DNA from: Alteracholeplasma palmae J233 | GTDB lineage: Bacteria > Bacillota_I > Bacilli_A > Acholeplasmatales > Acholeplasmataceae | Direction: 5' to 3' | Assembly (NCBI RefSeq): GCF_000968055.1 | Contig: NC_022538.1 | Span: forward strand, 1,027,499 to 1,091,498 | DNA length: 64,000 bases | Shown here: positions 31,035 through 42,270 of the stretch, piece after piece | Numbering within the stretch: position 1 is the stretch's first letter | Layout of the letters: the number at the start of each line of letters is the position of its first letter | Notes under the pieces: model-generated | Seen by the model: only the letters and a program-made list of their open reading frames with translations | Databases searched by the model: none | What the model was told of the DNA's origin: nothing | Translations under genes and position numbers: made by a program

Positions 31035-31974
31035 CTAGTATTTTTACCGCCTGTTCTATAGTTTCTATTCGATAAATTTTCATATTAGGAAATTTTTCTA
31101 TTACTTTCAATTCTTCATCGTAGTTATCTTTAGCCATGAAAAAGTGATTGGCTTTATATCTATTTGCAGTATAAATTTTTTGTGTAGCTCCACCAATTTT
31201 CCCTATTGTTCCATCGTTATTAATTGTCCCAGTCCCAACAATTTTTGAATTTATTTTTTCATAGTTTAATAAACTTGCGTATATGTGCAGGGTTTGCATC
31301 ATTCCACCTGAAGGTCCACCAGTGTATGTGTTTAATCCTTTAAGATCAATGTTTGATGTTTTACTTTCAAATGAATAATATGGATAAAATAAGTATTTTT
31401 TCCCACTAGCAAAGGAAACTGTAGTGCCATCTTCTAATAAAAAACTATAGTTTTTATCCTTCTTAATACTATTTATCATTTCTTCATAGGTGTTAAATCC
31501 ATTGATACTTTTAATTAAAGTTCCTATTTTTAAACTTTCTCTTTGTTCTAACTCACTGTAATAAACTTTTAGTCCTAAAAAATTAGAAGTAAAATCAATA
31601 TCAGTTTTTTTCATTTTAGCTAATTCAAAAGCTTTAATTAAGGACATTTGATATGAGGCTTCTTTAGAAATTTGTCCTTGAAGAGACTCCTCTTTTTTTG
31701 TTAAACTACTTTCATAAGCAGACATTTTATCTGTATCCATAGATTGAGAAAGACCAAAAACCATTTTTTCAAATGGTGTTATTTTTGTTTTATAATAAAC
31801 TGAAATAGTATATAGATCTAGTGTATTGGTTTTATTATCAATTAAGATATCTTCTGATACACTACCGATTGTGCCTGGCGCGGTTACTTGGTAATCTGTT
31901 GGTATAATTAAAGCCATCATAACGTAACAATAAGCGAAAAGACATGTAAAAAAGATTTTCTTAAATTTAGTCAT
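31009..31974 (-). CDS. Membrane-anchored PDZ/Lon-type serine protease (YlbL/SepM-like)
   Basis: The 321-residue protein has one N-terminal helix, a PDZ-like domain (about 110-180) and a Lon-type S16 domain. The catalytic Ser lies in TGGPSGGMMQT and the Lys in GGATQKIYTA. It would cleave substrates at the outer face of the membrane; Bacillus YlbL and streptococcal SepM are known relatives. It overlaps comEB by 8 bases. Confidence 0.85.
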   Translation of the reverse strand: MTKFKKIFFTCLFAYCYVMMALIIPTDYQVTAPGTIGSVSEDILIDNKTNTLDLYTISVYYKTKITPFEKMVFGLSQSMDTDKMSAYESSLTKKEESLQGQISKEASYQMSLIKAFELAKMKKTDIDFTSNFLGLKVYYSELEQRESLKIGTLIKSINGFNTYEEMINSIKKDKNYSFLLEDGTTVSFASGKKYLFYPYYSFESKTSNIDLKGLNTYTGGPSGGMMQTLHIYASLLNYEKINSKIVGTGTINNDGTIGKIGGATQKIYTANRYKANHFFMAKDNYDEELKVIEKFPNMKIYRIETIEQAVKILDEIYTKLH

Positions 31975-32440
31975 TTTTCACTACTTCACTAGCATTTATT
32001 TGTCTATACGAAATATTTGCAGCTTTCATCATTTTAAATGCAGCCTTGTGTAAGTCTGTTTCACTATATTTATCTGAAACATAGACTATTTCTTTAATAC
32101 CACTTTGAATGATTAATTTCATACATTCGTTACAAGGAAATAATGTTACATATATGCTAGAACCTTTAGTTTCTCTGGTAGCATTTAAAATAGCATTTGC
32201 CTCAGCATGAACAACATAGGGATATTTAGTATCTACAATGCTCTTATTTTCTCTTTCCCATGGAAATTCATCATCTTCACAGCCACTAGGTAAACCATTA
32301 TATCCAATGCCTATAATTCTTTTATCAGTATTAACAATACAAGCGCCAACTTGTGTACTTGGATCTTTACTTCTTAAAGCAGATAATTGTGCTACTCCAA
32401 TAAAATATTCATCCCATGAAATATATTTTTGTCGTTTCAT
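31967..32440 (-). CDS. comEB: Deoxycytidylate deaminase (ComEB-like)
   Basis: The 157-residue protein has the zinc motif HAEANAI and PCNECMKLII, and the N-terminal WDEYFIGVAQLSALRSKDPS typical of dCMP deaminases. It converts dCMP to dUMP for thymidylate synthesis. Coupled to msrA by a 4-base overlap. Confidence 0.9.
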   Translation of the reverse strand: MKRQKYISWDEYFIGVAQLSALRSKDPSTQVGACIVNTDKRIIGIGYNGLPSGCEDDEFPWERENKSIVDTKYPYVVHAEANAILNATRETKGSSIYVTLFPCNECMKLIIQSGIKEIVYVSDKYSETDLHKAAFKMMKAANISYRQINASEVVKND

Positions 32441-32931
32441 TTTTTCTCCTCATCTTTTAAAAGTCCCAAATCAATATGACAATAACCATTTGGATTTTTA
32501 GTTAAATAATCTTGATGATATTTTTCAGCATCATAAAAATTAACTAAAGGTTCTACTTCAACTACTATTTTTTGTGAACTTTCACTTTGTTTTTTCTCTA
32601 TGAATTTAAGTGCTATTTCTTTTGTTTCTAGTGTTTCATAATAGATGCCTGTTCTATATTGAATGCCGATATCTCCTCCTTGCTTATTTAAGGAAAAAGG
32701 ATTAATGATTCTAAAAAAGTGTTCTAATATTGTTTCTAGTCTCACTTCATTTGTGTATATAATTTCAATAGCTTCAGAAAAATGGTAAAGACCACTACAT
32801 ACTTCTTCGTATGTAGGGTTTTCTTTATTACCATTAGCATAGCCTACCTTAGTGTCTAAAACACCTTTTAATTGTTTAAAATAAGCTTCTACGCCCCAAA
32901 AACAACCACCCGCTAAATAGATTTTATTCAT
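32437..32931 (-). CDS. msrA: Peptide methionine (S)-S-oxide reductase
   Basis: The 164-residue protein has the catalytic GGCFWGVEAYFKQLKGV, GYANG and YHQDYL motifs of MsrA. It repairs oxidised methionine in proteins using thioredoxin. No fused MsrB domain is present. It overlaps aspS by 8 bases. Confidence 0.93.
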   Translation of the reverse strand: MNKIYLAGGCFWGVEAYFKQLKGVLDTKVGYANGNKENPTYEEVCSGLYHFSEAIEIIYTNEVRLETILEHFFRIINPFSLNKQGGDIGIQYRTGIYYETLETKEIALKFIEKKQSESSQKIVVEVEPLVNFYDAEKYHQDYLTKNPNGYCHIDLGLLKDEEKK

Positions 32932-34642
32932 TTTTACTATCTACCTTAATATTTAATTCTTTTAATTGAATAGGTTCTACAAAATCTGGAGCTTCTAACA
33001 TTAAATCTTTAGCACTTTGTGTTTTAGGGAAAGCAACAACATCTTTAATATTATTTGTTTTGGTTGCTAGCATCACAACTCTATCAAGTCCTAGAGCTAT
33101 TCCTCCGTGTGGTGGTGTACCATATTTTAACGCTTCAACAAAGAAACCAAATTTACTCTTAATTTCTTCTTGGCTAAATCCAAGTGTTTTAAACATTAAA
33201 TTTTGAACTTGTTGTCTGTGGATTCTAATAGATCCTCCGCCAACTTCATAACCATTCCATACAATATCATATGCTTGTGCAAGTGAATCTTTTGGGTTAT
33301 TTTCTAAAATATGCGCATCTTGTGGTGCTGTAAATGGGTGATGCATTGCATAATATCTTTGTTCTTCACTATCATATTCTAATAATGGCCAGTTAACTAC
33401 CCATAGTAAGTTATCTTTTGTTTCATCAATCATATTAAGATCAGATGCTACTTTTAATCTAAGTGCACCTAATGCTGGTAAAACATTTTCTGTTTTACCA
33501 GGTACAATCAATACTAATTCATCTTCTAAAATGAAATCTTCTTTTTCAATGAATTTAGCAATAGAACCTGATAATTGTCCGTTTTCTTTTCTTAAGAAAG
33601 CTAATGCTTCACCATGATGTTTTTTAACTAAAGCTGCATATTCATCTAGTTTTTTTCTAGTAATTGATTTATCATTTTTGACACGGATGGCTCTTATAGT
33701 TTCTTTTCCTTCAAAAAGAGGAATTGCATAACCATTAAGTATTGATGTTAAGTCTTCTATTAAACATTCAAAACGCGTATCTGGTTTATCACTACCATAT
33801 AAATTTAAAGCATCTTTATAATCCATTTTTTGTAATGGTAAAGTTATTTTTTTGTTTAGTACATTTTTAAATAAATTGGCGAATACTTCTTCTGTTAATT
33901 CCATAATATCTTCTTGTGTGATAAAAGAGGCTTCAACGTCTATTTGTGTAAACTCAGGTTGTCTATCGGCTCTTAAGTCTTCATCTCTAAAGCATTTAGC
34001 TACTTGGAAGTATTTTTCAAATCCAGCAACCATATATAATTGTTTAAAGATTTGAGGTGATTGTGGTAAGGCATAAAATTGGCCTTCATATAGACGTGAT
34101 GGAACTAAATAGTCTCTAGCACCTTCTGGAGTAGATTTTGCTAGAATAGGTGTTTCTAGTTCATAGAATTTGTTATTTAACAGTGTTTGTCTAATAGATT
34201 GTGTGATTTCATGTCTTTTAATTAAGTATTTTTGTACACTTGGTCTTCTTAAATCAAGATATCTATATTTAAGTCTTGTTTCTTCTAAACTTTCTGACTC
34301 TTCTTGCATACTAATTACAGGAGTTTCTGATTCGTTTAGTAAAACTAGATTTTTAACATCTACTTCTATTTGTCCTGTTATTATTTGGTTATTTTTATTT
34401 TCTCTTTCTAAAACTGTTCCAGATACTTCAATTACATATTCAGATTTTAAAGATGAAATGAGTTCATATTGTGGATGTTCTGGTCTAATGACTAATTGAG
34501 TGATACCAAAATGGTCACGTAAGTCAATAAAGATTAATCCACCTAAGTTTCTTTTTTTAGCAACCCAACCTTTTAATAAAACAGCTTCTCCTACATTATT
34601 AAGTGTCAGTTCATTGTTATGGTGTGTGTATTTATTTTTCAT
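32924..34642 (-). CDS. aspS: Aspartyl-tRNA synthetase
   Basis: A 572-residue class II synthetase with an N-terminal OB-fold anticodon domain, motif 2 (FRDEDLRADRQPEFTQID), GAD insertion domain and motif 3 (GGIALGLDRVVML). It charges tRNA-Asp, and may also charge tRNA-Asn where the non-discriminating form is used, which sequence alone does not settle. It overlaps hisS by 4 bases, under the T-box leader at 36.5 kb. Confidence 0.96.
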   Translation of the reverse strand: MKNKYTHHNNELTLNNVGEAVLLKGWVAKKRNLGGLIFIDLRDHFGITQLVIRPEHPQYELISSLKSEYVIEVSGTVLERENKNNQIITGQIEVDVKNLVLLNESETPVISMQEESESLEETRLKYRYLDLRRPSVQKYLIKRHEITQSIRQTLLNNKFYELETPILAKSTPEGARDYLVPSRLYEGQFYALPQSPQIFKQLYMVAGFEKYFQVAKCFRDEDLRADRQPEFTQIDVEASFITQEDIMELTEEVFANLFKNVLNKKITLPLQKMDYKDALNLYGSDKPDTRFECLIEDLTSILNGYAIPLFEGKETIRAIRVKNDKSITRKKLDEYAALVKKHHGEALAFLRKENGQLSGSIAKFIEKEDFILEDELVLIVPGKTENVLPALGALRLKVASDLNMIDETKDNLLWVVNWPLLEYDSEEQRYYAMHHPFTAPQDAHILENNPKDSLAQAYDIVWNGYEVGGGSIRIHRQQVQNLMFKTLGFSQEEIKSKFGFFVEALKYGTPPHGGIALGLDRVVMLATKTNNIKDVVAFPKTQSAKDLMLEAPDFVEPIQLKELNIKVDSKNE

Positions 34643-35904
34643 TTTTTAAGTAACTCCTTTAAGTGTTTAACCACAATCTTATTAGGGATTGTTTCTTGTG
34701 TTTCTGTTTTTGTATTTTTAATTGTAATCATTTGATTCTTAATTTCTTCTTCACCTAATATTAGTAAGTAAGAAGCATTTTGCTTAATTGCTTGTTTAAG
34801 TTGTCCTTTAAAATTTCTATTCATATAATTCATTTCAGCTTTAATATCATTACTTCTTAATTGATTTAAAAGTGTGGTTGATACTAAACTATCTTTATTA
34901 TCAAAAGTTAGAATATAAGCATCTAATTTATCTTCATCAATTAATGAAATATCTTCAGCTTCAAGTGCTAATAAAAGTCTTTCCATCCCAAAAGCAAATC
35001 CGATTCCACTTAGGTCTGGTCCTCCTAGTTCTTGGACTAATTTTTGATAACATCCGCCTCCGCCTAAAACATTTTGTGCTCCAAAACCTTCAATATCAGC
35101 TTCTATTTCAAATACTGTATGACTATAGTAATCTAATCCTCTTACTAGTTTAGGTGCTGTTTCATATGGAATATTTGCCTCATTTAAACCTTTTAATACA
35201 AGCATATAACGTTCGTGCGCAGCTGGTGTTAAATGTTCTGCTGGAACTGGGGCAGTTTGTAAGGCAATGTGATCTTTATCAATTTTACAATCTAGAATTC
35301 TTAATGGGTTTTTATCAATTCTTTTTTGACAATCTTCACATAGAGTTTCTTTGTGTTTACTAAAGTGATCAACAAGAATTTCTTGATAGTTTTTTCTAGA
35401 TTCTGCATCACCTAAGGTATTGATTCTAACTCTTACTCCCTTTAAGCCTAATCTTTTAATTGTTTCATAAGCAAGTGATACAACCTCAATATCTAGATAA
35501 GGGCTATCAGATCCAACAGCTTCGATACCAAATTGACTGAATTGACGATATCTTCCTTTTTGTGGTCTTTCATATCTAAAATTAGGTCCCATATAATAAA
35601 ACTTAGATACATCTTGATTGACATAAAGTTTATTTTCAACGTAACTTCTAATAACACCAGCCGTTCCTTCTGGTCTTAGAGTTAGTTCTCTATCACTTCT
35701 ATCTAAAAAATTATAGGTTTCTTTAGTCACCATTTCTGATTGTTCTGTTTCTCTATGGAAAACTTTACTATATTCCATAATAGGTGTTCTAATTTCTGAA
35801 TAATTGTAGACTTCAAATATTTTTCTCACCTTTTGTTCAAGTGCTTGCCATCTTCTTGTTTCATCAAATAATAAATCATATGTTCCTTTAACCTTTGTAA
35901 TCAT
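34639..35904 (-). CDS. hisS: Histidyl-tRNA synthetase
   Basis: The 421-residue class II synthetase begins KVKGTYDLLFDETRRWQAL and has motif 2 FRYERPQKGRYRQFSQFG, the His-specific LVRGLDYYSHTVFE and a C-terminal anticodon-binding domain. It lies between a GNAT gene, which it overlaps by 17 bases, and aspS. Confidence 0.96.
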   Translation of the reverse strand: MITKVKGTYDLLFDETRRWQALEQKVRKIFEVYNYSEIRTPIMEYSKVFHRETEQSEMVTKETYNFLDRSDRELTLRPEGTAGVIRSYVENKLYVNQDVSKFYYMGPNFRYERPQKGRYRQFSQFGIEAVGSDSPYLDIEVVSLAYETIKRLGLKGVRVRINTLGDAESRKNYQEILVDHFSKHKETLCEDCQKRIDKNPLRILDCKIDKDHIALQTAPVPAEHLTPAAHERYMLVLKGLNEANIPYETAPKLVRGLDYYSHTVFEIEADIEGFGAQNVLGGGGCYQKLVQELGGPDLSGIGFAFGMERLLLALEAEDISLIDEDKLDAYILTFDNKDSLVSTTLLNQLRSNDIKAEMNYMNRNFKGQLKQAIKQNASYLLILGEEEIKNQMITIKNTKTETQETIPNKIVVKHLKELLKK

Positions 35905-36445
35905 TTTCGTACTCCTTTTTTGTTAGTTGATACCAGTAAGTATCTTCATATTCTTGTTCAAATCTATTATAATAATTCATTTTTTTTATTTCTATCAATT
36001 TAAAATGATTAGCTTTAATTACCTTCATACTTGCCAAATTAGATTCAGCATGTCCTATGAGTAGTGTTTCATAATTAAGCTGGAAAAAACCTATTTTAAT
36101 GAGCTTAGATACTGCTTTTTTCATGATGCCTTGATTCCAATAATTAGAATTAAGGACATATCCGATTTCTACTGTGTTATCAGGGTGGATTGTATGAAAG
36201 TCTAGTGTTCCAATCATTTTATTTAACTTTAAATCAACAATAGCATATCCGACAGGAAGTCCTCTTTTAGGCCTTTCTAAAAAGTGGTACTTAATCGTAT
36301 CATAGGCTTCAGTTTTTGTTAAGTAGGGTCCCCAACTGAGTAATTTGATTACTTTATAATCAGAACCATACTCAAAAAGATCTTTATAGTCATCTAGTTG
36401 AATATCTCTTAACATATAGTTTGAAAACAATACTGAAGATGCCAT
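35888..36445 (-). CDS. GNAT acetyltransferase, RimJ/RimL type
   Basis: The 185-residue protein has MLRDIQLDDYKDLFEYG, IGYVLNSNYWNQGIMKKAV for acetyl-CoA binding, and a C-terminal Asn/Tyr-rich part typical of RimJ/RimL-like N-acetyltransferases. Substrate unknown. It is the first gene after the T-box leader, ahead of hisS. Confidence 0.8.
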   Translation of the reverse strand: MASSVLFSNYMLRDIQLDDYKDLFEYGSDYKVIKLLSWGPYLTKTEAYDTIKYHFLERPKRGLPVGYAIVDLKLNKMIGTLDFHTIHPDNTVEIGYVLNSNYWNQGIMKKAVSKLIKIGFFQLNYETLLIGHAESNLASMKVIKANHFKLIEIKKMNYYNRFEQEYEDTYWYQLTKKEYENDYKG

Positions 36446-36470
36446 ATGAACATTCCTTTCTTAATAAAAT

Positions 36471-36690
36471 AAAAACGTCCTTAAATAAAACTCTAAGGAC
36501 GAATTAATCGCGGTACCACCTTAGTTCTATAACAATTGTTATAGCACTTAAAAATAGATTAGTCTCAAAAGGTGTCTGCTTATACTTTTTATGCAATCTT
36601 TCACCAACATTGCTCGCTTTAATAAAAATTATTATAAGTCTATTCTTTCTCATCAACTGATTTAATTATATTAATATCATATAAGATTTA
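36471..36690 (-). ncRNA. T-box riboswitch leader of the GNAT-hisS-aspS operon
   Basis: The minus strand carries the diagnostic T-box AAGGTGGTACCGCG (36509-36522). A terminator follows with CGTCCTTA/TAAGGACG arms (36494-36501 and 36476-36483) and a T-run. The competing antiterminator can use the same CGTCCTT strand. A stem I region precedes it. GACAC at 36572-36576 is the best specifier candidate: GAC (Asp) followed by a purine, overlapping CAC (His). Uncharged tRNA would allow readthrough. Confidence 0.9.
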
Positions 36691-36704
36691 CATCTTTTTG
36701 TCAA
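36676..36704 (-). promoter_or_regulatory. Sigma-A type promoter of the T-box operon
   Basis: TTGACA (36699-36704) and TATGAT (36676-36681) are separated by exactly 17 bases on the minus strand. It begins right after the stop codon of the upstream AI-2E family gene. Confidence 0.85.
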
Positions 36705-36705
36705 T

Positions 36706-37773
36706 CTATATTGAATCTTTCATTTGTTTTAATTTAGATTTAATAGGCTCATGGTAATATCTATAAGTAATCACAGTAATCACTAAGACTGGTAAAGATA
36801 GAATCGTTCCATAAATGCCAAATACTGCACTTCCAACTAAGACAAAAGCAATAGAGATAACAGGATTTATTTTTAGCTGCTTTTTATAAATTTTAGGGTT
36901 AATAACATAACCATCTAATTGAGGGAAAATGAGCATAAAAATAATTAATCCTAGAATTGGAATTGCGGCATGAGCAACTCCCATAATGACAATTCCAGAA
37001 AATGTTATCGATAAATATCCTCCAAAATAAGGTATTAAAGATAAAACAGATGCTGTAATCCCAACAATTAAAGCATACGGTAATAAAGCATGGTTAAATA
37101 TAGATAATATTAAAAATAAGGTTGTATATTCTAAAAATTGAATACCTGCAATAATAATTTCTACTCTTACATAATTGTTTAATTCTGTACTTAATGTTTT
37201 GACATATTGATATGTATGTTCATTTTTTTCTTTCAAGTGTTCGGTTACTTTTTGTTTAATCTTATTAAAATTAAATAAGAAAGTAATACCTACAATCACC
37301 ATTACGATTGCCCCAATAAAAATTTGAGCAACTTCTTCCACCGTACCATTGGTAGCGGTAAATAAGTTATTAATTCGTGCGACAACTTTATCTACAAATT
37401 CTACAACATAATTAGAAAACTCATCTGTATTGATATTAAATAGTTGTCCAATTTCAGTAATAATATTTCTAACCCCATTTGAAAGATTAGTTAAATTAGG
37501 AACAGCTGGTTTAATAATATAAATAACAATAAGTGTTATTCCTATAATGACTGTTGAATATAAAATAACAATTGCAAGTCCCCTATGAACTTTAAATCTT
37601 TCTAAGAAGTTGACTGCAGGATTTAAGACAAAAGCTAGAATAAAGGCAAATATTAATGGTAATAAGGCAATAAGAATCCTTTTAGCAACAGGAAATGCAT
37701 AAGGAATTAGTAAAATTGCTACATAGATAATTGCCAGTAAGACTAATATGTTGATTAGTTTTTTATTTATCAT
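36706..37773 (-). CDS. AI-2E family / UPF0118 membrane permease
   Basis: The 355-residue protein has seven or eight helices, the long amphipathic central region, and the C-terminal IIFMLIFPQLDGYVINPKIY motif of this exporter family. Substrates differ between members (autoinducer-2 export, ion antiport) and cannot be assigned here. It is the last gene of apt-rel-dtd and ends just before the T-box promoter. Confidence 0.85.
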   Translation of the reverse strand: MINKKLINILVLLAIIYVAILLIPYAFPVAKRILIALLPLIFAFILAFVLNPAVNFLERFKVHRGLAIVILYSTVIIGITLIVIYIIKPAVPNLTNLSNGVRNIITEIGQLFNINTDEFSNYVVEFVDKVVARINNLFTATNGTVEEVAQIFIGAIVMVIVGITFLFNFNKIKQKVTEHLKEKNEHTYQYVKTLSTELNNYVRVEIIIAGIQFLEYTTLFLILSIFNHALLPYALIVGITASVLSLIPYFGGYLSITFSGIVIMGVAHAAIPILGLIIFMLIFPQLDGYVINPKIYKKQLKINPVISIAFVLVGSAVFGIYGTILSLPVLVITVITYRYYHEPIKSKLKQMKDSI

Positions 37774-37775
37774 TG

Positions 37776-38210
37776 TTATATTTCGATGATGATTGTAACG
37801 GGCCCATTGTTAATAGAGGCTATTTTCATATCAGCACCGAATTCTCCTTCCTCAGTTGGAATAAATTCTTTCATTTTTTTTACAAATGTTTGATATAACA
37901 AAGATGCTTTTTCTCTATTGAGTGCTTTAGTAAAGGATGGTCTATTGTTTTTAGACGCATCGGCATAAAGGGTGAACTGTGAAATAAGTAAACAAGATCC
38001 CTTCACATCTAGAATATTTAAATTCATTTTTTGTTCACTATCTTCAAAAATTCTTAATTTAATAATTTTTTGAATCATTTTATTAACGTGTTCTTCAGTA
38101 TCTTCCAAGGTAAATCCAACATAAACTAATAACCCTTCGTTGATTGATCCAATTACTTTATTTGAAACAGTTACATTGGCTTCTGTTACTCTTTGTACAA
38201 CTACTTTCAT
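37776..38210 (-). CDS. dtd: D-aminoacyl-tRNA deacylase
   Basis: The 144-residue protein starts MKVVVQRVTEANVTV and has LLISQFTLYAD and NNGPVTIIIE, the family's active-site segments (SQFTL and GPVT). It removes D-amino acids from mischarged tRNA. It overlaps rel by 4 bases, as in many Firmicutes. Confidence 0.95.
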   Translation of the reverse strand: MKVVVQRVTEANVTVSNKVIGSINEGLLVYVGFTLEDTEEHVNKMIQKIIKLRIFEDSEQKMNLNILDVKGSCLLISQFTLYADASKNNRPSFTKALNREKASLLYQTFVKKMKEFIPTEEGEFGADMKIASINNGPVTIIIEI

Positions 38211-40387
38211 CTGATATCTCTTTCTATTTGATAAACTTGGGATACTTTATGTAAATTAGCAATCAATTTACTGAGCTCATCAAAATTAGCAACTGATACT
38301 TTTAACTTTACTGTAGATTCTAATTTAGTGTTAGAAACAGCATTCATTTCCAAAATAGATATGCCTAAAGCATTAATGGTTGTAATTACTTCTGAAATAA
38401 GTGAGTCTCTGGTTGTTCCTACTAATTTTACCCATGTTCCAAACTTTCTAGTTACATTTTTTCCCCAGTAAGCAGGAATTAATCTATTTTTATCATATTC
38501 TGATAAATTAGGACAATCTAGTCTATGAATAACAATACCACTCCCTTTAGTAACATATCCTGCTACTTCATCATTTAATACTGGTGTACAGCAATTTGCA
38601 AGTTTTAATTGTGGATTTGTTAGTCCATCTACAATTACTCCAGTTTCACTTTGTGCAATAATTTGTCTGGTAGCTTTTTCCATTTGTTTTTGAAGCATGG
38701 CTTCTTTATCTACTTCTGGTTGAACAATTTTATTGATTACTGTTTTAACACTTATCGTGTTTTTACCAATTTCATGATATAAATCGGATAAAGTTGAGAT
38801 CATATTCTTTTCAAAGTTTTTCTTAACAAAATTATCATCTAGTGATTGTGTGATTTTATTAGCAATGAATTCTTTTTCTAACTGATCTTTTCCAGATTGA
38901 ACTAAAAAGTCTTTATTCTTTTTATTTAAAAATCCCTTAATTTTATGTCTTGCATGTGAACTTTTGGCTATTTTTAACCAGTCATCACTAGGACCAGAAG
39001 AATTTTTATTAATCTTAATACTAATAATATCTCCTGTTTTTAATTCATATTCAAGAGGGACAATTCTATCATTAACGATTGCTCCAACCATTCTTGTTCC
39101 CAAATCAGTATGTATTCTAAAAGCAAAGTCAATAGGCGTAGATCCTTTTGGTAATTCAACTACTTGTCCTTTTGGAGTAAAAATATATACATTAGCACTT
39201 AAGATATCACTTTTTACTGTTTCAACAAATGATTCTGATCCACCGTCTCTATCATCATCGTCTTCTGACATCTTAAGAAGTTCGCCATACCATTTAAGTT
39301 TTTCAGCAATTTCAAATTGTTCTTTTTCTTTGGAGTATGCTTTATTTTCTTTATAAGCCCAGTGAGCAGCAATACCATTTTCAGCAATATCATCCATCTC
39401 TTTAGTTCTAATCTGAACTTCAAATAATGTTCCATCATTTGCTAAAACAGTTGTATGAAGTGATTGATATAAATTGGGTTTAGGAACAGCAATATAGTCT
39501 TTAAATCTTCTAGGAATAGGAGTATAGTTTGCATGAATTAATCCTAGCGCTTGATAACAGTTTTCAACTTTATCAACAATAATTCTTACCGCAAGTAAGT
39601 CATAAATATCTTCAAAATCTCTATTATTTTTAACCATTTTTTTATAGATACTATAGATATTTTTGATTCTTCCTTTAATTTCATACTGATTTAAATCATA
39701 TTCTTTAAACATTGTTTTTATATTTTCTATAACAAGTTCTATTGAATGTTCTCTTTGTTCCATTTTTAACTTGATTAAATTATTAACTTTATAATACATA
39801 CCTGGATCAGTATATCTTAAAGATCTATCCTCAAGTTCTGCTTTAATCCTAAAAAGTCCTAAGCGGTGTGCTAAGGGCGCATAAATTTCTAAAGTTTCTG
39901 AAGCAATCCTAACTTGTTTATCTTTAGGCATAAAGTCAAGCGTTCGCATATTATGTAGTCTATCTGCAATTTTAATAATAACCACTCGAATATCTCTTGC
40001 CATCGCAAGCAACATTTTTTGATGATTATCAGACTGCGTGCCTTCTTGATTGAATGATAGTTTAGTTAGTTTCGTGACACCATCAATTAGGCTTGCTACA
40101 TCTTTACCAAACATTTGTGTTAAATCATCAAAAGTAACATCTGTATCTTCCACTATATCATGTAATAAACCTGCAACAAGTGTATTAGGACCCGCATTAA
40201 GTCCAGCCAAAATACGTGTAACAGCAACCGGATGAATAATATACGGTTCTCCACTACGACGCATTTGACCTGTGTGTTTGCTTTTAGCTAACAAGTAGGC
40301 TTTTTCAATTTTATCTAAATCTTCTTTTTTAGTAATATATTTTGAAACATCATCTAATAATGCTTCATATAATGGGTCTACTTGCAT
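38207..40387 (-). CDS. rel: Bifunctional (p)ppGpp synthetase/hydrolase
   Basis: The 726-residue RelA/SpoT protein has the HD hydrolase domain (GQMRRSGEPYIIHPVAV, LLHDIVEDTDV), synthetase domain (RIKNIYSIYKKM, LVRII-type region, HTTV), TGS domain and C-terminal zinc-finger/ACT region. The intact HD motif suggests both hydrolysis and synthesis. It sets the stringent response to starvation. It is co-transcribed with apt and dtd. Confidence 0.95.
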   Translation of the reverse strand: MQVDPLYEALLDDVSKYITKKEDLDKIEKAYLLAKSKHTGQMRRSGEPYIIHPVAVTRILAGLNAGPNTLVAGLLHDIVEDTDVTFDDLTQMFGKDVASLIDGVTKLTKLSFNQEGTQSDNHQKMLLAMARDIRVVIIKIADRLHNMRTLDFMPKDKQVRIASETLEIYAPLAHRLGLFRIKAELEDRSLRYTDPGMYYKVNNLIKLKMEQREHSIELVIENIKTMFKEYDLNQYEIKGRIKNIYSIYKKMVKNNRDFEDIYDLLAVRIIVDKVENCYQALGLIHANYTPIPRRFKDYIAVPKPNLYQSLHTTVLANDGTLFEVQIRTKEMDDIAENGIAAHWAYKENKAYSKEKEQFEIAEKLKWYGELLKMSEDDDDRDGGSESFVETVKSDILSANVYIFTPKGQVVELPKGSTPIDFAFRIHTDLGTRMVGAIVNDRIVPLEYELKTGDIISIKINKNSSGPSDDWLKIAKSSHARHKIKGFLNKKNKDFLVQSGKDQLEKEFIANKITQSLDDNFVKKNFEKNMISTLSDLYHEIGKNTISVKTVINKIVQPEVDKEAMLQKQMEKATRQIIAQSETGVIVDGLTNPQLKLANCCTPVLNDEVAGYVTKGSGIVIHRLDCPNLSEYDKNRLIPAYWGKNVTRKFGTWVKLVGTTRDSLISEVITTINALGISILEMNAVSNTKLESTVKLKVSVANFDELSKLIANLHKVSQVYQIERDIR

Positions 40388-40403
40388 AAAGCCACCTTCT
40401 TTT

Positions 40404-40916
40404 CTAATATTTCATAAGTGCTTTAACTGGGTATTGTTTAATTTTATCTCTTCCGTTTAATTCTTCTAATTCTATTAAAAATGCTAATCCAACAACAATT
40501 CCACCTAATGATTCAACTAATGAGATGGTCGCTTCTACAGTTCCACCTGTTGCAAGCAAATCATCTATAATAAGTACTCTATCACCTTTTTTAATAGCAT
40601 CTTTGTGTATAGATAATGTATTTGTTCCATATTCTAAGTCGTATGTAACACTTTGTGCTTCTCTTGGTAATTTACCAGGTTTTCTTACTGGGGCAAACCC
40701 TATTCCTAAGTTAACAGAAACTGGACAACCAAAAATGAATCCTCTTGCTTCTGGTCCAACTATTAGAGTTGCTTCTTGTTCTTTAGCAAATGTAGTAAAT
40801 TCATCTGATGCATATTTATATGCCTTCCCATTTAACATTAAAGGCGTAATATCTCTAAATAAAATTCCTTCTTTAGGAAAATCAGCTACTGAAGCAATAT
40901 AATCTTTTAAATTCAT
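40404..40916 (-). CDS. apt: Adenine phosphoribosyltransferase
   Basis: The 170-residue protein has [14 protein letters not shown] at the N-terminus and the PRPP motif [13 protein letters not shown]. It makes AMP from adenine and PRPP. It is first in the operon before rel, a standard Firmicutes arrangement. Its leader holds a weak hairpin, AAAAAGC/GCTTTTT, about 25 bases before the start; I do not call this a regulator. Confidence 0.94.
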
Positions 40917-41040
40917 GTTCTTAATGTCCTCCGACTAAATTAAAAAAGCGAATGCTTTTTCGTGTATCTATATTTTAATCTAAAACGAGCAATTTTACAA
41001 GGTCAGTATATGATATAATATTTAAGTAGGAGTTGATTAT

Positions 41041-42270
41041 ATGCAACCTTTAGCTTATCGCATGCGTCCAAAAAACTTTGATGATGTTTATGGACAAGAC
41101 CATTTAGTAGGTTCTAATGGTGTTTTAACAAAAATGTTAGAAAAAAATAAATATTTATCATTTATTTTATATGGTTTACCGGGAACTGGTAAAACTACTA
41201 TCGCAATGCTTTTTTCAGAAAAAAGTCAGTTAGATACTTATTTTTTTAATGCCTCTACTGATAATAAATCTAGATTAGTTGATATTTTAAACACAACAAC
41301 TTATCACAATGTATTACTAGTAATAGACGAAATTCATAGAATGAAAAAAGATATTCAAGATTATTTATTACCGTTTATGGAAAATGGTAAGGCAGTTGTC
41401 ATTGGTATGACAACAGTCAATCCTTATCAAAGCATTAATGCTGCTATTCGTTCTAGATGTCATTTATATGAAGTGAGATCTCTTTTAGATGAAGATATAA
41501 AAAAAGCTTTATTAAAATCTGTTCATAGTCTTGAAGTTGATATTAAAGTAAAACCAGAAGCACTTGATACAATTATTAGATTTTCTAATTTTGAAATTAG
41601 AAGTGCTTTAAATCTTTTAGAAGCTGCTTCTTTAGTTTTAAACGATGGTGATACACTAACATCTAACATTGTTAGAAGTGTAGCTGGTAAAGCACAACTT
41701 GCCCTAGATGGTGGTGAAGATCATTTCTATGATAATTTAAGTGCTTTACAAAAATCAATTAGAGGCTCTGATGTTGATGCTGGTCTACATTATCTAGCAA
41801 GGCTTATTACATTAGGTGACTTAGAAATCATTTACAGACGTTTAATTGTCATTGCTTATGAAGATATTGGTCTGGCTAATCCAACGATGGGACAAAAGGT
41901 TTTAGCGGCTTGCGAGGCTGCTAAGATGTTGGGGATGCCTGAAGCTAGAATTCCACTGGCTAATATTGTTATAGATTTAAGTTTATCTCCTAAGTCAAAC
42001 AGTGCTTATACTGCTTTAGATAAAGCAATAGATGATTTTTCTAATGGTCATGCTGGTAAGATTCCTAATCAAGCTTTAAATAGAGAAATTAAAAAAGACC
42101 CTAGTATTTATCATTATCCTCATGATGATGTTAATAGTTTAAATAGTCAAAGATATATTCCTGATAATTTACTAAGTAAACATTATTATGTTCCTAAAGA
42201 AGAAAGTGCTTATGAAAAAGCACTTAGTGAAAGAAAGAAACTCATTGATAAAGTTAAACATATAAAATAA
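41041..42270 (+). CDS. rarA: Replication-associated recombination ATPase RarA/MgsA
   Basis: The 409-residue AAA+ protein starts MQPLAYRMRPKNFDDVYGQD. It has Walker A GLPGTGKTT, Walker B LVIDEIHR, the sensor region, and the C-terminal RarA tetramerisation domain (ALNREIKKDPSIYHYPHD). It acts at stalled forks. AGGAG lies about 8 bases before the ATG. It is monocistronic and divergent from apt. Confidence 0.93.
   Translation: MQPLAYRMRPKNFDDVYGQDHLVGSNGVLTKMLEKNKYLSFILYGLPGTGKTTIAMLFSEKSQLDTYFFNASTDNKSRLVDILNTTTYHNVLLVIDEIHRMKKDIQDYLLPFMENGKAVVIGMTTVNPYQSINAAIRSRCHLYEVRSLLDEDIKKALLKSVHSLEVDIKVKPEALDTIIRFSNFEIRSALNLLEAASLVLNDGDTLTSNIVRSVAGKAQLALDGGEDHFYDNLSALQKSIRGSDVDAGLHYLARLITLGDLEIIYRRLIVIAYEDIGLANPTMGQKVLAACEAAKMLGMPEARIPLANIVIDLSLSPKSNSAYTALDKAIDDFSNGHAGKIPNQALNREIKKDPSIYHYPHDDVNSLNSQRYIPDNLLSKHYYVPKEESAYEKALSERKKLIDKVKHIK

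What the first reader, a model, noticed from the sequence alone, without database searches (positions are those of the whole stretch)
36471..36690. T-box with an overlapping Asp/His specifier before hisS-aspS
The leader has GACAC where the specifier loop is expected. GAC would pair with tRNA-Asp and CAC with tRNA-His, the two tRNAs charged by the operon's enzymes. T-boxes with two readable codons are known, so this one leader may respond to both tRNAs.
Basis: partly seen in the sequence, partly recalled or inferred. Interest (0 to 1): 0.5.

Follow-up and report, generated by a model that had tools for sequence, protein, structure and literature searches.

The report
Aspartate T-box before GNAT-hisS-aspS operon
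A tRNA-sensing RNA switch sits before the genes that load histidine and aspartate onto tRNA; it most likely reads the aspartate tRNA, its overlapping histidine codon is largely what such switches carry by default, and relatives have much smaller versions of it.

Summary
The T-box is real: minus strand 36662-36492, RF00230, 84 bits, E 9.5e-19, with a terminator and a promoter-like site. GACAC lies in the specifier loop. The operon is T-box, GNAT acetyltransferase, hisS, aspS.

GACAC at hisS-aspS T-boxes, and sensing of both tRNAs, are already in print; I saw this only as quoted by later papers.

My tests favour aspartate. In 108 unique hisS leaders the Asp codon is kept in 105, the His codon in 89. 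On a 53-row hisS tree the His codon needs at least 7 changes, the Asp codon 1. A same-genus relative reads GACAA. A His codon two bases on is ordinary: 22 of 29 control leaders carry one, versus 89 of 108 here (P 0.43). UGGU can wobble with tRNA-Asp G73, not pair with tRNA-His C73. One result favours dual reading: CAC:CAU is 88:1 here, 12:10 in controls (not phylogeny-corrected).

Outside the window, 28 related leaders have a Stem I of 36-54 nt without the elbow-binding module, no evident Stem II, and a terminator-like hairpin. A review calls the module essential in transcriptional T-boxes, and Stem II essential when Stem I is truncated.

The parts
36699..36704 (-). -35 hexamer TTGACA
   Evidence: 11 of 12 matches with the -10, spacer 17; 2 such sites found against a shuffled mean of 2.4, so only position and likeness to relatives speak for it
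36676..36681 (-). -10 hexamer TATGAT
36561..36659 (-). Stem I (98-99 nt) with K-turn-like base
   Evidence: RF00230 alignment, fold, coordinates; K-turn and elbow-module naming by recall of T-box anatomy
36613..36618 (-). first T-loop sequence of the elbow-binding module (AGCGAG)
   Evidence: aligned to the conserved AGAGA of RF00230; module pattern rings
36598..36608 (-). second T-loop sequence of the elbow-binding module (GUUGGUGAAAG)
   Evidence: aligned to UUGGUGaaA of RF00230; module pattern rings
36574..36576 (-). GAC, the favoured specifier (Asp)
   Evidence: kept as GAY in 105 of 108 leaders
36572..36574 (-). CAC, overlapping possible His specifier
   Evidence: kept as CAY in 89 of 108 leaders; absent in the same-genus relative L198
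36524..36547 (-). Stem III
   Evidence: about 16 nt between Stem I and Stem III, so no room for Stem II or IIA/B
36509..36522 (-). T-box core AAGGUGGUACCGCG; UGGU at 36518-36515 meets the tRNA 3' end
36495..36522 (-). antiterminator
   Evidence: RF00230 alignment, coordinates
36476..36501 (-). intrinsic terminator, 10 pairs then TTTTTATTTT
   Evidence: shuffled mean 0.0
35888..36445 (-). GNAT acetyltransferase, first gene
   Evidence: PF13302 E 6.4e-22
34639..35904 (-). hisS
   Evidence: TIGR00442 above cut-off
32924..34642 (-). aspS
   Evidence: NF001750 and TIGR00459 above cut-off

Best explanation
This is a transcriptional T-box riboswitch that reads tRNA-Asp through GAC in its specifier loop. 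Uncharged tRNA-Asp would pair its anticodon GUC with GAC, and its 3' end GCCA with the UGGU bulge through a G-U wobble; that stabilises the antiterminator and the GNAT-hisS-aspS operon is transcribed. Charged tRNA-Asp leaves the terminator to form. The CAC that overlaps GAC is mostly a by-product of T-box grammar: a specifier ending in C, then A, then a pyrimidine. The anatomy is shown by sequence and alignment; tRNA binding and switching are inferred from the known mechanism of the family.
For: RF00230 over the full model, 84 bits; terminator. GAY 105 of 108, CAY 89 of 108, both 86 of 108. Fewest changes on the 53-row hisS tree: His codon 7, Asp codon 1. Same-genus L198 reads GACAA with UGGC. 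Seven leaders without CAY (L051, L060, L061, L064, L065, L068, L071) precede GNAT-hisS-aspS and L106 precedes hisS-aspS. Controls: 22 of 29 leaders with a C-ending specifier before other genes also carry CAY at +2, not different from 89 of 108 (P 0.43). In the own genome asnS reads AAC-AC and ileS AUC-AU. The 108 leaders have UGGC or UGGU (63 and 45), both able to meet G73; own tRNA-Asp has G73 and tRNA-His has C73. The own asnS leader also meets a G73 tRNA with UGGU.
Against: CAC is kept far more often than CAU (88:1 here, 12:10 in controls, P 1e-7), although rows are related and each leader family has its own helix. In the window the fifth base C is not paired in Stem I (P paired 0.04 with GACA held open), so Stem I does not explain why it is kept. 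By the Rfam columns the +0 frame of the window is ACA (Thr); GAC is at -1 and CAC at +1, so position alone does not prefer Asp, although alaS and trpS of the same genome also use -1. UGGU meets G73 only by wobble. Three leaders read GGCAC, keeping His and losing Asp. A fold that includes the T-box pairs CAC with it. L109, which lost CAY, is followed by a gene only 31% like aspS.
Confidence: 0.7

Rival explanations
1. Two-codon T-box: the same loop reads tRNA-Asp by GAC and tRNA-His by CAC, shifted by two bases, so that shortage of either amino acid raises both synthetases.
For: Both codons match the two synthetases of the operon and lie in the unpaired loop, at -1 and +1 of the Rfam frame. Both are kept in 86 of 108 leaders, and CAC:CAU is 88:1 against 12:10 in controls. 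Two-codon T-boxes exist: Asn/Glu in C. acetobutylicum, as told by PMC4052509 (passages). The idea for hisS-aspS is in print, as told by PMC4342826 (passages). A T-box that answers a second tRNA is reported for B. cereus lysK in PMC2916919 (passages).
Against: CAY needs at least 7 changes on the tree, and leaders that lack it still precede hisS (9 of 9 looked at); CAY at +2 no commoner than in controls; UGGU cannot pair with C73, though TBDB sets that rule aside for tRNA-His (passages of PMC7778990). The apparent link of CAC with UGGU in f1+f5 (34 and 5 against 5 and 9, P 5e-4) is not borne out by independent pairs (6 pairs, the trait differs in none or one). PMC5313534 reports that Gutierrez-Preciado et al. 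thought GACAC mainly meets tRNA-Asp (passages).
Confidence: 0.22
2. CAC is kept for RNA folding: CACCUU of the specifier region pairs with AAGGUG of the T-box in a tRNA-free OFF state.
For: Folding of the longer transcript pairs these stretches, P(unpaired) of CAC 0.18-0.21. The window's fifth C is otherwise unpaired.
Against: Thermodynamic fold without co-transcriptional order, K-turn or tRNA; CCUU-like strands occur at this place in other T-boxes of the genome, so chance complementarity is likely. The A of GACAA leaders breaks it. Not tested across leaders.
Confidence: 0.05
3. The leader reads tRNA-His alone or tRNA-Thr (ACA at the +0 frame).
For: ACA sits at the Rfam +0 columns; three leaders keep only CAC.
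Against: thrS has its own T-box elsewhere in this genome (L010; gene named by recall) and no thrS is listed near this operon (32000-42000). GACGC leaders (L051, L061) keep GAC and lose both ACA and CAC; GAUAC (L106) keeps Asp by a synonymous codon.
Confidence: 0.03

Closest known systems
hisS-aspS T-box leaders of Bacillales and Lactobacillales (GACAC leaders)
   Same: One T-box before hisS-aspS with GACAC in the specifier loop; stated in PMC5313534 (passages) and, for dual sensing, PMC4342826 (passages), both citing Gutierrez-Preciado et al. 2009, which is not held.
   Different: A GNAT gene is first in the operon; Stem II is absent from the window leader; related leaders are pared down much further.
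Two-codon T-box of Clostridium acetobutylicum (Asn/Glu; Saad et al. 2013)
   Same: Overlapping codons in one specifier loop, each matching the pathway.
   Different: I recall a shift of one base there; here it is two. Binding of both tRNAs was shown there (as told by PMC4052509; the paper itself is not held) and is untested here.
glyQS T-box
   Same: Long Stem I with the elbow-binding module, no Stem II (PMC7583486, passages; window).
   Different: The specifier is GGC, a strong codon that the review gives as the reason Stem II is dispensable; here it is GAC.
Ultrashort-Stem I translational ileS T-boxes of Actinobacteria
   Same: Stem I without the elbow-binding module, as in 28 relatives of the window leader.
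   Different: Those act on translation and need Stem II (PMC7583486, passages); the relatives here have terminator-like hairpins and at most 21 nt before the next predicted hairpin.

Membership tests
T-box riboswitch (RF00230) | Match to the family covariance model | tested here: met
   84 bits, E 9.5e-19, model 1-219; but under the curated gathering score of 93
T-box riboswitch (RF00230) | T-box core and antiterminator with UGGN | tested here: met
   AAGGUGGUACCGCG at 36522-36509
T-box riboswitch (RF00230) | Competing intrinsic terminator before the first gene | tested here: met
   36501-36476, 10 pairs and U-tract, shuffled mean 0.0
T-box riboswitch (RF00230) | Specifier in the Stem I loop matching a downstream gene | tested here: met
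   GAC and CAC in the loop; hisS and aspS downstream
T-box riboswitch (RF00230) | Stem II and IIA/B (optional) | tested here: not met
   model columns skipped; 16 nt between Stem I and Stem III
T-box riboswitch (RF00230) | Binding of uncharged tRNA and antitermination | not testable with these tools
   needs in vitro or in vivo assay
Two-codon T-box | Two overlapping codons in the loop, each matching the operon | tested here: met
Two-codon T-box | Second codon kept beyond what T-box grammar gives | tested here: inconclusive
   CAY 89 of 108 against 22 of 29 in controls, P 0.43; CAC:CAU 88:1 against 12:10 (not corrected for kinship)
Two-codon T-box | Discriminator pairing possible with both tRNAs | tested here: inconclusive
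   UGGU wobbles with Asp G73 and mismatches His C73; TBDB does not apply the rule to tRNA-His
Two-codon T-box | Both tRNAs bind | not testable with these tools
   needs binding assay

The most novel reading that the evidence does not exclude
The hisS-aspS leaders of the window's family (f1) include a minimal transcriptional T-box: a Stem I of 36-54 nt that lacks the elbow-binding module and is followed by no Stem II, yet controls a terminator. In such a leader tRNA would be held by codon-anticodon pairing and its 3' end alone. The window leader is an intermediate that still has the elbow module but has lost Stem II. Loss of the elbow ruler may also allow the GAC and CAC frames to be read alternately.
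Probability: 0.5. Interest if true: 0.6.

Novelty: new member of a known kind. Interest (0 to 1): 0.38.

Why it matters
The control count matters beyond this case: a His codon two bases after a C-ending specifier is common in T-boxes of these genomes, so an overlap such as GACAC is weak evidence of dual specificity. The reduced relatives matter more. If they work, they are natural transcriptional T-boxes without either of two parts that a review calls essential (the elbow module in transcriptional T-boxes, Stem II where Stem I is truncated), and the 13 tested score 38-55 bits against Rfam's cut-off of 93, so scans at that cut-off miss them.

Tried and rejected
RNAalifold on the Stem I alignment A1 gave no pairs; I think because the apical hairpins differ in length and MAFFT does not line them up. 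Counts on a named structure gave 84.1% of cells paired and a covariation score of 0.255 against 0.150 in shuffles, reached by 0 of 500; but 'further pair types' did not exceed the shuffles (428 of 500 reached it), and only 65.4% of cells of the apical helix pair in that alignment. The 23 distinct apical stems in 27 rows come from a search for the longest complementarity per row, without a shuffled control. In the same way promoter distances, linker lengths and terminator stems are the best match or longest hairpin per row, without a control; the shortest linkers there look like chance stems.

The first pattern for the elbow module (0 of 27 short leaders) had no positive control. One search supplied one: a stricter ordered pattern rings in 22 of 25 leaders that I had taken as long or left unclassed and in 0 of 28 short ones; the first pattern rings in 20 of 25 and 1 of 28 (L084, in a longer stretch that includes the promoter region). 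The three long or unclassed leaders without the pattern are L140, L199 and L215.

The link between CAC and UGGU looked strong without phylogeny (P 5e-4) and is not supported by independent pairs, which were too few to reach significance. A role of the GNAT in resistance to aspartyl-adenylate inhibitors was considered because MccE appears among PDB matches, but only at E 0.0069, behind RimJ/RimL-like acetyltransferases; it is left as a lead. PADLOC gave no match. A paper search for T-box with GNAT, acetyltransferase, synthetase and operon found none.

Rows dropped: of the 77 hisS loci L042-L118, 8 gave no T-box row (L062, L066, L067, L086, L111, L114, L116, L117), and 11 repeated other loci; the 60 rows include the window. 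From these I dropped three matches judged false by eye (L100 minus strand, L115, L118), L042 (the window itself) and L082 (leader cut off). From 100 fetched regions (not every hisS place was fetched) 27 had no T-box match and 17 repeated earlier leaders, leaving 56; in all 108 are unique. Leaders with a T-box far from the pattern would be missed. Four specifiers (L108, L148, L186, L215) were corrected by eye. The f-group labels were set by hand. The 29 controls are a hand reading out of 99 leaders (89 fetched, 10 own); the others have specifiers not ending in C or could not be read with certainty. Some controls are probably close relatives of each other (L289 and L291; L263 and L265).

Full report
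The observation. On the minus strand, 36662-36492, the window carries a T-box leader (RF00230, 84 bits, E 9.5e-19). It is under Rfam's gathering score, so the default scan is empty. A promoter-like site (TTGACA, 17 nt, TATGAT, 36704-36676) and a terminator (36501-36476) frame it; the promoter match is not above chance by number (2 found, 2.4 expected), the terminator is (shuffled mean 0.0). The genes are a GNAT acetyltransferase, hisS and aspS, each overlapping the next. The genome is one contig of 1.55 Mb with 11 T-boxes. Of the 29 closest hisS records by title (L072-L100), 22 are named Acholeplasma, Paracholeplasma, Acholeplasmataceae or Acholeplasmatales, so I take it for a member of that group. 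T-boxes in Mollicutes are known (PMC2494555, passages).

Placement of GACAC. In the Rfam alignment the eight unpaired columns of the specifier loop read GCAGACAC. In the own genome the alignment shows where cognate codons sit: valS GUA, metG AUG, pheS UUC, asnS AAC, serS UCU, ileS AUC and thrS ACU fall on columns 5-7 of the eight, alaS GCU and trpS UGG one base earlier (synthetases named by recall from the ORFs). In the window those columns read ACA, with GAC one base earlier and CAC one base later. So GAC is in a place that two other leaders of this genome use, and CAC in a place that none of the nine others shown uses (the tenth, tyrS L011, has no printed alignment). Stem I alone folds as expected with GACAC open (P 0.80-0.95); with the T-box included, CACCUU pairs with AAGGUG.

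tRNAs. Own tRNA-Asp(GUC) ends in G73-CCA, tRNA-His(GUG) in C73-CCA, with a G just before its 5' end. UGGU can wobble with G73 and mismatches C73. trpS and serS leaders use UGGC for G73 tRNAs, but asnS uses UGGU for a G73 tRNA, so wobble seems tolerated here. TBDB does not apply this rule to tRNA-His (PMC7778990, passages).

Comparative census. hisS was found at E 1e-60 or better in 152 of 160 genomes of the order. Leaders were read from loci, 12 of them from outside the order; 108 unique ones hold a T-box and a readable specifier. GACAC 85, GACAA 14, GGCAC 3, GACGC 2, GACAG 2, GACAU 1, GAUAC 1. GAY is kept in 105, CAY in 89, both in 86. On a tree of 53 hisS proteins (quick method, 22 of 50 inner branches starred, some long branches, the window among them) the fewest changes are 7 for the His codon and 1 for the Asp codon. 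The same-genus relative L198 reads GACAA with UGGC. Of the 19 leaders without CAY, 9 have their downstream genes in hand: 7 precede GNAT-hisS-aspS, L106 hisS-aspS, and L109 hisS followed by a gene 31% like aspS; the other 10 were fetched only up to hisS.

Control for the overlap. A specifier ending in C, a following A and a pyrimidine give CAY without any need. Of 29 leaders of other genes with a C-ending specifier, 22 carry CAY at +2: valS 3 of 6, pheS 5 of 7, asnS 4 of 5, Tyr leaders 5 of 5, Ile leaders 4 of 4, asnB-like 1 of 2 (hand reading; the genes of the non-synthetase ones are named by recall or by the specifier alone). Against 89 of 108 hisS leaders, P is 0.43. Within CAY, hisS leaders have CAC 88 and CAU 1, controls 12 and 10 (P 1e-7). 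This last result favours a reading of CAC, but it is not corrected for kinship.

Known or new. PMC5313534 (passages) says that GACAC is characteristic of hisS-aspS T-boxes and that Gutierrez-Preciado et al. 2009 thought it mainly meets tRNA-Asp. PMC4342826 (passages) says that the same review suggested two alternative structures sensing both tRNAs. The review itself is not held. The finding is therefore a new member of a known kind, and its interpretation is an open suggestion already in print.

What lies beside it. Of 46 unique f1 leaders, 28 have a Stem I of 36-54 nt (median 47.5). In 25 of the 28 the best promoter-like pair ends 16-20 nt before Stem I, which leaves no room for a longer Stem I; in all 28 the script finds a hairpin of 9-13 pairs with a U-rich tail after the T-box. 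An ordered pattern for the elbow module rings in 22 of 25 other leaders and in 0 of these 28. Of 16 leaders given to Rfam, all match RF00230 under the cut-off, the 13 short ones at 38-55 bits. The window, L198, eight g12 leaders and five others (L056, L073, L092, L093, L095) of f1 keep a long Stem I by eye and by the pattern; three (L140, L199, L215) lack the pattern and were not classed. In the review PMC7583486 (passages) the elbow module is called essential in transcriptional T-boxes, and Stem II essential where Stem I is truncated in Actinobacteria. The 28 leaders lack both, so they are either a minimal working form or decayed; the nearly unvaried specifier and K-turn bases and the kept T-box speak for function. 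On the 53-row tree the short form needs at least 6 changes. I saw no account of it in the listings of nine paper searches on T-boxes or in the passages read; only open-licence papers are held, and I read no paper whole.

Verdict. A real T-box, most likely read by tRNA-Asp. Dual reading stays possible at about one in five. The more interesting lead is the reduced form in relatives.

Noticed in passing
L043-L174, 28 leaders listed: hisS leaders of related genomes with a Stem I of 36-54 nt, no elbow-binding module, no evident Stem II, and a terminator-like hairpin; in L071 the predicted specifier sits in a hairpin loop of a 36-nt Stem I.
   Followed up: partly
window 35888-36445: A RimJ/RimL-like GNAT gene is first in the operon and is found before hisS in 58 of the 59 loci L042-L100, repeated loci included (absent in L059). 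Weak PDB match to MccE (E 0.0069).
   Followed up: partly
L001, also L229, L249, L255: Another GNAT-like ORF (by recall of its sequence) follows a T-box with a GUA specifier; in the own genome (L001) it precedes valS. GNAT genes behind synthetase T-boxes may be a theme.
   Followed up: no
L056, L156, L160: Three hisS leaders read GGCAC, which keeps CAC and loses GAC.
   Followed up: no
L105, L108, L109, L113: Outside the order, the gene after hisS matches aspS only at 30-33% identity; it may be another class II synthetase although the leaders read GACAC or GACAG.
   Followed up: no
window 36569-36574 with 36517-36522: CACCUU of the specifier region is complementary to AAGGUG of the T-box; folds of the longer transcript pair them.
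   Followed up: partly
window 31967-32931: Two more short minus-strand ORFs follow aspS with overlapping ends; by recall of motifs they look like msrA and a dCMP deaminase, so the transcript may extend.
   Followed up: no
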